A stretch of 64,000 nt of DNA. It comes from Leptothermofonsia sichuanensis E412 (lineage in GTDB: Bacteria > Cyanobacteriota > Cyanobacteriia > Leptolyngbyales > Leptolyngbyaceae). A model generated the notes under the pieces. That model saw only the letters and a list, made by a program, of their open reading frames with translations. It ran no database searches and was not told the origin of the DNA. Below, piece by piece: positions 5,116 to 56,279 of this stretch. Location of the stretch: positions 3,844,001 through 3,908,000 of the forward strand of contig NZ_CP072600.1 in assembly GCF_019891175.1 (NCBI RefSeq), written 5' to 3'. Position numbers and translations under genes: made by a program. Positions within the stretch are counted from its first letter, which is position 1; each line of letters opens with the position of its first letter.

Positions 5116-5532
5116 TTTTACTCACTTACACCACTTTCAATATCTTAACCTAAGCTTCACAAAAAATTGTAATCCACTGTTACAAAAGAAAGGGAAGAAC
5201 TGGCTCAGTTTTTGAACTGGTTGACATGATTCCTGCTCATTCTTGAGCTGCTCATCCTTAGAGCTGAAACCGTTGGTGGTCTGTTAAGACTGGTTTAGGG
5301 GCAAAGCCTCCTCAAAACACCCTGAAATTGGTCTTTATAGATTTGAGCTATCCCTCAAATCTATCCTGACGGACTGCTAGGGTATGAATCAGGGATCGGG
5401 GTACACTGAACGTAACCTCTTTCGCCAGATGCAAAGCTCAGGTAAGTTTGAACATCTGTTCCCAGGTCTGGAATTTCCAATCCCAGGGTACCTGTTCAAC
5501 ACAGCATTGTAGATGGCAAATGGCGAAATGGA
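5116..5532. other. Intergenic region upstream of thrC
   Basis: This is a 417-bp gap between divergent genes. It carries the family D repeat copy at 5273-5380. I see no tRNA, small gene or clear promoter in the rest. Confidence 0.6.
5273..5380. repeat. Dispersed inverted-repeat element, family D (copy D1)
   Basis: The element is about 108 bp. It starts ggtggtctgttaagac and ends ctgacggactgctag, so its ends are imperfect inverted repeats. An internal stem is formed by tagatttgag and ctcaaatcta. The same sequence, interrupted by an insertion, occurs at 54834-55082. Confidence 0.75.
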
Positions 5533-16159: not shown

Positions 16160-16205
16160 TACTAGTAGTGGAGGTTGGCGAAAATAACCCGCCAGTTTTA
16201 GGTTG

Positions 16206-16263
16206 AACCACAAAGACACAAAGTGCACGAAGAAACTTTGTGTCCCTTGGTGCCTTTGTGGTG
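16206..16263. repeat. Family E palindrome (copy E2)
   Basis: The arms aaccacaaagacacaaag and ctttgtgtcccttggtgcc form an imperfect palindrome downstream of psbV. It is the same family as the copy at 3966. Confidence 0.7.
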
Positions 16264-16284
16264 AAAAACTTCTACCACAATGCG

Positions 16285-16380
16285 CTAGTGGTCTGTCAAG
16301 AATTATTTTGTCGGTTGAAAACCTCAAAATAATAATCCTTTCTTGATCCCAGACTTACAATTTCAAGGTTAACCACTAGT
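16285..16380. repeat. Family D-related element (copy D3)
   Basis: It starts ctagtggtctgtcaag, as in the copy at 54834, and ends ggttaaccactag, giving short inverted ends (ctagtggt). The interior differs from D1 and D2, so this is a divergent or rearranged member. Confidence 0.55.
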
Positions 16381-54054: not shown

Positions 54055-54723
54055 TCAAGTCAGGCTAAAGATTTCAAACTCTGGTGTACCGAAAATAGTG
54101 GTCCGTCCTACGGCTGAGAGAATTTTGTTGTTGGCGCGATCGGACTTGAGACAATCGCAGACCAACTGCGCCACATCTGCCCGATGGATCGTCCCTGCAA
54201 TTAAAGGATTTTCGGTCAAGATCCCTTCTCCCACGGGCGGTTCAGATCTCAGTCCGCCCGGTCGAATGATGGTATAGGTCAACCCGCTGGCAATCAGATG
54301 GTTCTCTGCCTGTTCCTTTTCTGCCAGGACAGGACCCAACGTTTCCAGGGCTGGTAGGGGCAGAGCAGGGGCACTATCCCCAGAGCCAATCGACGTGACC
54401 AGAATAAATTTCTTCACCCCCGCTTTGACCGCCGCATCTACCAGATTTCGGTTGCCCTTAAAGTCTGCCCGCTCCCCATCTGTGGGTTTGCCGCCAATCG
54501 TGCTGATGACCACTTCAATGGGAGCCGCCAGCATGGCCTGTTCAACCGCTTCTGGCTGTAGAGCGTCCCCGATCGCCACTGTAACATTCATGGCTTCCAG
54601 GTGCTCGCGAGCACTCTCAGAGCGAAGCATGGCTCTCACAGGATAATTTTGGGCAACCAGTTGTCTGGCAATTTCCTGCCCGACACCGCGACTCGCTCCT
54701 GCCAGAAAAATAGATGATGTCAT
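54055..54723 (-). CDS. NAD(P)-binding atypical SDR protein
   Basis: The product is 222 aa from the ATG at 54723 (MTSSIFLAGASRGVGQEIAR). The frame is open to 54804, but those codons are unlikely to be used. The Gly-rich nucleotide loop GASRGVGQEIA and the later VISTIGGKPTDGERADFKGN, FILVTSIGSGDS and IIRPGGLRSEPP fit the SDR5/NmrA-like group. Members act as reductases or photosystem assembly helpers. No catalytic Tyr-X3-Lys is evident, so binding rather than classical catalysis is possible. Confidence 0.85.
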   Translation of the reverse strand: MTSSIFLAGASRGVGQEIARQLVAQNYPVRAMLRSESAREHLEAMNVTVAIGDALQPEAVEQAMLAAPIEVVISTIGGKPTDGERADFKGNRNLVDAAVKAGVKKFILVTSIGSGDSAPALPLPALETLGPVLAEKEQAENHLIASGLTYTIIRPGGLRSEPPVGEGILTENPLIAGTIHRADVAQLVCDCLKSDRANNKILSAVGRTTIFGTPEFEIFSLT

Positions 54724-54833: not shown

Positions 54834-55082
54834 ACTAGTGGTCTGTCAAGACTGTTTTGAGGGGCAAAGCCTCCTCAAACCATCCTGAGAAACTGTTTGT
54901 AAACTAGTGTTAAAACTGTCCAGGCGTTTGCAACTCAAAGGTTTCGAGGTTCAGATTATTTGTTCTGGAAAACCTCGAATTCCTCGCTTATCAGGGCGTT
55001 TATATTTATTTACAAACAGTTTCTGAAACTGGTTTGTGTAGATTTGAGTTATTCCTCAAATCTATGCTGACGGACTACTGGT
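54834..55082. repeat. Family D element (copy D2), interrupted
   Basis: It starts actagtggtctgtcaagact and ends atgctgacggactactgg. The flanks match the copy at 5273, but the centre is split at 54889-55023 by another element. Without that insert and one copy of the TGA it is about 111 bp, close to D1. Confidence 0.85.
54889..55023. mobile_element. 135-bp MITE-like element nested in family D2
   Basis: The ends gaaactgtttgtaaa and tttacaaacagtttc are perfect 15-bp inverted repeats. TGA flanks both sides (54886-54888 and 55024-55026), as a 3-bp target duplication. It carries no ORF, so a transposase elsewhere must have moved it. Confidence 0.85.
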
Positions 55083-55112: not shown

Positions 55113-56279
55113 ATGAAACTGGCAGCACGGGTTGGACAGGTTACCCCTTCATTGACACTGGCAGTAGACACCAAAGCCAAGGCCATGAAAGCAGAGGGGT
55201 TGAGCGTCTGTAGTTTCAGTGTTGGCGAACCCGATTTTCCGACGCCTGCCCACATTGTGCAGGCCGCACAGAAAGCTCTGGCAGAGGGCAAGACAAAGTA
55301 TGGGCCAGCGGCTGGAGAACCCAAATTGCGTGAGGCGATCGCCCAGAAACTTCAGAAGGAAAATTCGCTCTGCTATGGTACTGAAAACGTCATCGTTACA
55401 AATGGGGGCAAGCACTCACTGTTCAACCTGTTTCTGGCAACGATTGAGCCAGGAGATGATGTGATTATCCCTGCTCCTTACTGGGTCAGCTATCCAGAGA
55501 TGGTGAAGTTAGCAGCAGGAAACCCTGTCATTGTCAAAACCACGGCTAAAAACGGATTTAAGATCACCCCTGAGCAGTTGCGGCAGGCAATTACGCCTCA
55601 AACCCGACTGTTTGTGCTGAATTCGCCTTCCAATCCCACGGGAATGGTCTACACCCCAGAGGAAATCAGGGCACTGGCAGACGTAATTGTTGAGAAAGAT
55701 ATTTATGTCGTTTCAGACGAGATTTATGAAAAGCTGCTCTATGACGGAGCCGAACACTTTAGCATTGGGGCAGCCAGTCCAGAGATTTATGATCGCACAA
55801 TTGTCAGCAGCGGGTTTGCCAAAGCCTATTCAATGACGGGTTGGCGGGTTGGGTTCCTGGCCGGTCCAGCCGATGTGATTCGGGCCTGCATCACAATTCA
55901 GGGACACAGCACGTCCAATGTCTGTACCTTTGCCCAGTACGGGGCGATCGCAGCTCTGGAAGGTTCTCAGGAGCCAGTTGAAGCCATGCGCCAGGCATTT
56001 GCCCAGCGTCGTCAGTACATGATGGATGCCGTTCAGGCGATTCCAGGACTGACCTTCCCCAGGCCAGATGGGGCATTCTATTTGTTTCCCAGTATTCAGC
56101 AGACTGGACTCACCTCCCTTGAGTTCAGTGAAGCGTTACTGACTGAGTACCAGGTTGCCGTTGTCCCTGGGATTGCGTTTGGTGCTGATGATTGCATCCG
56201 CCTTTCCTATGCCACAGATATGGACACAATTAAGAAAGGCATGGAGTTGCTGGATAAGTTTGTGCGATCCAGACTCTAA
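55113..56279 (+). CDS. aspC: Aspartate aminotransferase-type PLP enzyme
   Basis: The product is 388 aa of the fold-type I aminotransferase family, subgroup I-gamma. The PLP lysine is Lys237 in [55 protein letters not shown] and the C-terminal Arg in CIRLSYA complete the family pattern. It moves amino groups between aspartate or prephenate and 2-oxoglutarate. The D2/MITE composite ends 30 bp before the ATG. Confidence 0.92.

What the first reader, a model, noticed from the sequence alone, without database searches (positions are those of the whole stretch)
54834..55082. MITE nested inside another dispersed element, with visible target duplication
The 135-bp insert has perfect 15-bp inverted ends and a TGA duplication. 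The surrounding family D copy can be reconstructed by comparison with the intact copy at 5273. This gives a clear order of insertion events and defines the ends and duplication size of a mobile element that has no ORF.
Basis: seen in the sequence. Interest (0 to 1): 0.6.

Follow-up and report, generated by a model that had tools for sequence, protein, structure and literature searches.

The report
IS5-type MITE nested in IS630-type MITE
A 135-base piece of non-coding jumping DNA, apparently a stripped-down relative of a known kind of bacterial insertion sequence, has landed inside another kind of jumping DNA in a cyanobacterial genome: real and clearly ordered in time, but an ordinary sort of event.

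Summary
Window 54889-55023 is a 135-bp insert with perfect 15-bp inverted ends and a TGA duplication. It sits inside a family D repeat; the 4 other D copies compared lack it. The complete 6.43-Mb cyanobacterial genome holds 20 near-complete places of the 135-bp element; in 12 of 20 the flanking triplets are identical, all 12 TNA. A search of 143 relatives found none (at most 6 candidates scored per genome). A likely partner was found: IS5-family elements of 923-963 bp in other cyanobacteria with the same or similar ends and TNA on both sides, whose left-end consensus matches the MITE for 22 bp. No IS with these exact ends was found in the window's own genome, so here it looks like an orphan MITE. 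The outer element resembles an IS630-type MITE with a TA target; IS630 elements with similar ends are resident. Two relatives show the outer site empty. Elsewhere an IS630-type element of another subfamily lies inside a 135-bp copy. New member of a known kind.

The parts
54889..55023 (-). 135-bp IS5-type MITE (strand set by its IS-left-like end lying at 55023)
54889..54903 (+). terminal inverted repeat; with the next base matches the IS right-end consensus for 16 bp, then GTTAA at positions 21-25
55009..55023 (-). terminal inverted repeat; read inward matches the IS left-end consensus for 22 bp
54886..54888 (.). TGA target duplication, left
55024..55026 (.). TGA target duplication, right
54838..54888 (+). 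left part of the outer family D element (IS630-type MITE), begins GTGGTCTGTCAAG
55027..55078 (+). right part of the outer family D element, ends GACGGACTAC
54836..54837 (.). TA target site of the outer element, left copy
55079..55080 (.). right copy of the outer target site, now TG
   Evidence: by eye
5276..5377 (+). second family D copy in the window, without the insert (flanks TG and TA)
54058..54723 (-). flanking gene, NAD(P)-binding protein (stop codon not included)
55113..56276 (+). flanking gene, class I/II aminotransferase (stop codon not included); 34 bases lie between the outer element and its ATG

Best explanation
The 135-bp segment is a non-autonomous miniature derivative (MITE) of a TNA-targeting IS5-family insertion sequence. 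An IS5-type transposase acting in trans recognised its 15-bp ends and joined it at a TGA inside an already resident IS630-type MITE (family D), duplicating the TGA. Shown: both elements, their ends, the duplication, the order of insertion, the outer site empty in two relatives, and IS5 elements elsewhere with the same ends and TNA flanks. Inferred: that such a transposase moved it, and that the autonomous copy was lost from, or only visited, this genome.
For: 20 distinct places in the own genome, 12 with identical flanking triplets, all 12 TNA; the 9 uninterrupted copies at 84% identity or more (L001-L007, L009, L010) are all among the 12. IS5-family loci: of 29 examined, 17 carry the ends within 3 mismatches on both sides, 3 of them exactly on both. 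Of 16 distinct elements tabulated, 16 have TNA on both sides; two more, shortened ones that I left out of that table (L113, L131), also do. The IS left-end consensus equals the MITE end for 22 bp, the right-end consensus for 16 bp and then GTTAA. Transposase: ORF A hits NF033580 IS5 family at 116 bits (cut-off 110), ORF B at 91 (below it); Pfam PF13340, PF01609, PF13586. D copies without insert: 4 of 5. Empty outer site in G001 and G006.
Against: No IS with these exact ends in the own genome: the 941-bp IS finds one 93-bp stretch at 76%; ORF A finds 12 relatives at 32-52% identity (ORF B was not searched there); no two ends within 2 mismatches lie 400 to 4000 bp apart. Similarity inside the ends is modest: positions 16-27 of the consensus match 9 of 12 on the left (shuffle p 0.006) and 6 of 12 on the right (p 0.08); per copy the means over positions 16-30 are 7.4 of 15 (own end) against 4.3 (other end) on the left and 6.6 against 5.4 on the right. 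8 of 20 MITE places have unequal triplets. 9 of the 16 tabulated IS elements have unequal triplets, and one of the 7 equal ones (L123) had been located by a search that demanded equality; L113 and L131 are unequal too. 12 of the 29 loci lack one or both ends at this threshold, some because the contig stops.
Confidence: 0.92

Rival explanations
1. The MITE is moved by a diverged IS5 transposase still resident in this genome, not by the exact-end IS.
For: An own-genome IS5 relative (L094 = L236, 40% identical over 268 aa) ends in GAAGCTGTTTGAAAA followed by TTA; two short remnants lie beside GAACCTGTTTGAAAA. Another, L095, has a stop-free stretch of 275 codons and ends GAGGATGTTTGAAAA / GAGGGTGTTTGAAAA with flanks TAA and TTA, so it may be complete.
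Against: Those ends differ from the MITE's at 2 of 15 positions (L094, remnants) or 4 of 15 (L095, left end). No left end was found for L094 within 4 mismatches at the expected place. The MITE's left subterminal sequence fits the exact-end IS group; it was not compared with the resident ones.
Confidence: 0.25
2. The 135 bp is an original part of family D, lost from the other copies.
For: None found.
Against: The segment occurs at 19 other places, 11 of them with identical TNA triplets; the 4 other D copies compared run through the site with a single TGA.
Confidence: 0.01
3. The element is kept by selection as an RNA hairpin or a coding insert, beyond being a MITE.
For: It folds end to end, -48.1 kcal/mol, z -7.2. 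One frame is open through all 45 codons in the five youngest copies.
Against: Across 16 aligned copies 3 of 37 pairs show a two-sided change and the covariation term is 0.01; the frame has a stop in 10 of 18 copies read.
Confidence: 0.04

Closest known systems
IS5 family, two-ORF elements (NCBIfam NF033580; compare the IS427 group as described in PMC3281130, passages seen)
   Same: Transposase family; of 12 loci read, 9 have two ORFs of 90 codons or more in different frames and 9 a run of A5G4 to A5G7; 923-963 bp; 15-bp ends
   Different: The window element carries no ORF of it. The IS427-group rows seen in PMC3281130 list 2-bp, once 4-bp, duplications; here 3 bp TNA. L127 has one ORF, and L114, L123, L129 no such run by my pattern
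Nezha, a cyanobacterial MITE (Zhou 2008, not held)
   Same: Cyanobacterial MITE proposed to be moved by an IS (ISNpu3-like) in trans, as told in a passage of PMC3049150; listed as a cyanobacterial MITE in a passage of PMC3733652
   Different: Its sequence was not held, so identity could not be tested
IS630-type MITEs (outer element)
   Same: TA target site; left end GTGGTCTGTCAA agrees with the resident IS630 end GTAGTCTGTCAA at 11 of 12 bases (by eye)
   Different: Right ends agree less well; interiors were not compared
136-bp element in G347 (L073)
   Same: Same ends but for one base, TAA on both sides, similar size, 67-68% identical to three own-genome copies
   Different: One full copy found in G347; of the 5 other genomes searched only the own genome gave full-length relatives

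Membership tests
MITE | short, with terminal inverted repeats | tested here: met
   135 bp, 15-bp perfect ends
MITE | target site duplication | tested here: met
   12 of 20 places identical, all 12 TNA
MITE | no transposase gene, several dispersed copies | tested here: met
   translations; 20 places
MITE | moved in trans by a transposase | not testable with these tools
   needs an assay
Derivative of a TNA-targeting IS5-family element | same ends and 3-bp TNA flanks as the IS | tested here: met
   17 of 29 loci with both ends within 3 mismatches; 16 of 16 tabulated with TNA on both sides, 7 of 16 equal
Derivative of a TNA-targeting IS5-family element | shared sequence inside the ends | tested here: inconclusive
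   left 9 of 12 (p 0.006), right 6 of 12 (p 0.08) against the consensus
Derivative of a TNA-targeting IS5-family element | autonomous partner in the same genome | tested here: not met
   not a strict requirement, since a partner can be lost
IS630-type MITE (outer element) | TA target site | tested here: met
   TA/TG here and TG/TA at 5276, one side changed in each; L063 TA/TA by eye; empty site reads AACTAGTG
IS630-type MITE (outer element) | IS630 with similar ends in the same genome | tested here: met
   10 of 14 loci read begin TAGTAGTCTGTCAACTTTG, 9 with the same ORF; L210 closes with TTGACAAGCTACTA by eye; NF033545 IS630 at 105 bits for the C part (cut-off 100) and 70 for the N part
Nezha | sequence identity to Nezha | not tested
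   paper not held

The most novel reading that the evidence does not exclude
An orphan MITE: its autonomous IS5 partner is gone from the genome, and the near-identical young copies were mobilised either by a visiting IS since lost or by a diverged resident IS5 transposase whose ends differ at 2 to 4 of 15 positions, i.e. cross-mobilisation.
Probability: 0.3. Interest if true: 0.35.

Novelty: new member of a known kind. Interest (0 to 1): 0.22.

Why it matters
It defines ends, target and a likely partner IS group for a MITE family that five searches of an open-access library did not turn up (listings only, and a sequence is rarely printed as searchable text). It gives an ordered nest with both empty states available, and a small, testable system for trans-mobilisation across diverged IS5 transposases.

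Tried and rejected
DDE_Tnp_4 (PF13359) transposases as partners: 5 matches in the own genome, none with these ends within 4 mismatches in its locus. IS-sized pairs of the 15-mer in the own genome, from all 80 matches: none between 400 and 4000 bp. Plasmid collection: no match. RNA function: no covariation worth the name. Coding role: the frame open in the five youngest copies has a stop in 10 of 18 copies read. A donor-derived middle base as the cause of unequal TNA flanks: the 9 uninterrupted MITE copies at 84% identity or more are all equal, so recombination between the long IS copies is the simpler reading; not tested further.

Limits and rows dropped. One search scored at most 6 candidates in each genome. 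One search drew 386 genomes from a larger phylum; of its 8 genomes with a hit one is the own, and the loci L074, L075, L076, L078 and L080 show no convincing second end. The 16 elements leave out L113 and L131, which have both ends but are shortened; both have unequal TNA flanks. One search's consensus used 17 rows, of which L082rc is identical to L114. One search lists 22 rows for 20 distinct places; L008, 88% identical over its matched part, is not among the 9 good copies because each of its ends has 3 mismatches and the pair is 255 bp apart. In one search the MAFFT panel used a wrong G001 segment (a second match overwrote the first), so the G001 empty site rests on the raw sequence and BLAST rows printed there; the G006 row is right. 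ORF B was not searched in the own genome.

Full report
What is there. Window 54889-55023 is a 135-bp segment bounded by GAAACTGTTTGTAAA and its exact complement, flanked on both sides by TGA. It interrupts a second dispersed repeat, family D, which runs from 54838 to 55078. Five D copies were compared. The one at 5276-5377 and three elsewhere in the genome (L062, L063, L064) read through the insertion point with a single TGA; only the nest has the 135 bp. The nest lies between two divergent genes, for an NAD(P)-binding protein and a class I/II aminotransferase.

How common it is. The window lies in a complete 6.43-Mb chromosome. I count 20 distinct near-complete places: four at 99-100% identity to the query (the window copy and L002-L004), the rest down to about 74%, plus fragments. 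One of the 20 (L058) was missed by the DNA search and found by its ends. In 12 of the 20 the triplets on the two sides are identical, always TNA (TGA, TAA, TTA or TCA); in 8 they differ, by one base in seven cases and by two in L012. The nine uninterrupted copies at 84% identity or more (L001-L007, L009, L010) are all identical on their two sides. A search of 143 relatives gave no match at E 0.001, with at most 6 candidates scored in each. Plasmid records gave none.

The partner. An exact scan for TNA plus the 15-mer in 386 genomes of the phylum hit 8, the own genome included. In G003, of the same family, two ends lie 941 bp apart around a transposase, in two different copies, one of which has one base changed in one end. 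ORF A and ORF B belong to the IS5 family: NF033580 at 116 and 91 bits (cut-off 110), PF13340, PF01609, PF13586. A scan of named genomes gave 502 relatives, 80 kept. Of 29 examined, 17 have the ends within 3 mismatches on both sides, three of them (L114, L127, L129) exactly on both. Sixteen distinct elements of 923-963 bp have TNA on both sides in 16 of 16; the triplets are equal in 7 and unequal in 9. Two shortened ones outside that table (L113, L131) are also TNA on both sides and unequal. Of 12 loci read, 9 have two ORFs of 90 codons or more in different frames and 9 carry a run such as AAAAAGGGGGG; L127 has the run but one ORF, and L114, L123 and L129 have no such run by my pattern. PMC3281130 (passages seen) describes two overlapping ORFs with a frameshift motif for the IS427 group of IS5. 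The left-end consensus GAAACTGTTTGTAAATAAATAT equals the window element's 3' end, read inward, for 22 bp; the right end shares GAAACTGTTTGTAAAC and, after four differing bases, GTTAA. These are matches to a consensus, not to one copy. The inner similarity alone is suggestive on the left (9 of 12, p 0.006) and weak on the right (6 of 12, p 0.08); same-end matches exceed cross-end ones (5 and 3). The element is best read as a derivative of this kind of IS that kept both ends.

An orphan here. In the own genome the whole IS finds one 93-bp stretch at 76%, and ORF A finds 12 relatives at 32-52% identity. No two ends within 2 mismatches lie 400 to 4000 bp apart. One relative (L094) ends in GAAGCTGTTTGAAAA followed by TTA, without a recognisable left end; another (L095) may be a complete IS5 with ends GAGGATGTTTGAAAA / GAGGGTGTTTGAAAA and flanks TAA and TTA. 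So the exact partner is absent at this sensitivity: either it visited and was lost, or a diverged cousin does the work.

The outer element. Family D begins GTGGTCTGTC and ends GACGGACTAC, in what was a TA site: the relatives G001 and G006 show CTGGGGTATCCTGAACTAGTG running straight on without it. TAGTNGTCNGTCAA occurs 119 times in the own genome against 4 for the control. Of 14 loci with the TAGTAG form read, 10 begin TAGTAGTCTGTCAACTTTG and 9 of these carry the same ORF, which in L210 matches the IS630 model in both parts, the C part above the cut-off; the one read to its end, L210, closes with TTGACAAGCTACTA (by eye). D is thus most likely an IS630-type MITE. At G000:C1:4761317-4761686 an element with the same ends but a different interior lies inside a copy of the 135-bp element, next to a third repeat (by eye). 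So IS630-type MITEs as a group and the 135-bp family were active over overlapping times.

Structure. The element folds end to end as an RNA hairpin, z -7.2, and the whole nest z -10.7, as expected for a foldback MITE. Across 16 copies the covariation term is 0.01, so there is no sign of selection on the fold.

Verdict. Real, correctly read, now with a likely partner; an ordinary kind of event and a new member of a known kind. Five literature searches of an open-access library did not show this family; ISfinder and the Nezha paper were not available, so it may already have a name. Confidence in the best explanation was lowered by 0.01 on checking, because one equal-triplet IS had been chosen by a search that demanded equality and two unequal ones had been left out.

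Noticed in passing
G000:C1 4761317-4761686 (L025): An IS630-type element (same ends as family D, different interior) lies at a TA inside a copy of the 135-bp MITE, followed by a third palindromic repeat.
   Followed up: partly
G000:C1 448398/448503, 1025324/1025429, 1476435/1476540/1476645, 2402517/2402622 and others: IS630-type ends repeat at exactly 105-bp spacing, in pairs and one triplet, as if a 103-bp element and its neighbour share one TA; seen directly at L209.
   Followed up: partly
L107, L108, L116-L119, L122, L124, L129; L113, L131; L141, L142: In 9 of 16 tabulated IS5 elements, and in two left out, both flanking triplets are TNA but differ in the middle base; two copies on one Desmonostoc contig have TAA/TTA and TTA/TAA. 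Recombination between copies is the likely cause.
   Followed up: partly
window 16200-16378: A third dispersed palindrome (ACCACAAAGACACAAAG...CTTTGTGGTGAAAAA) directly precedes another element with the D-type left end at 16288; the same repeat lies beside IS630-type elements in L025 and L210.
   Followed up: no
L073 / G347:C119:19335-19470: A 136-bp MITE with nearly the same ends and TAA on both sides in another cyanobacterial family, 67-68% identical to three own-genome copies.
   Followed up: partly
window 55025-55040: The target just right of the insert reads GAAACTGGTTTGTGTA, close to the MITE's own end GAAACTGTTTGTAAA; three of the four other D copies read GAAATTG there, so it may be chance.
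   Followed up: no
L002, L006, L013: Some copies of the 135-bp element overlap one end of a long open frame (540, 284 and 487 codons); whether they change a gene was not examined.
   Followed up: no
G000:C1 3161061-3161144: Two inverted ends only 84 bp apart, possibly a still shorter derivative.
   Followed up: no
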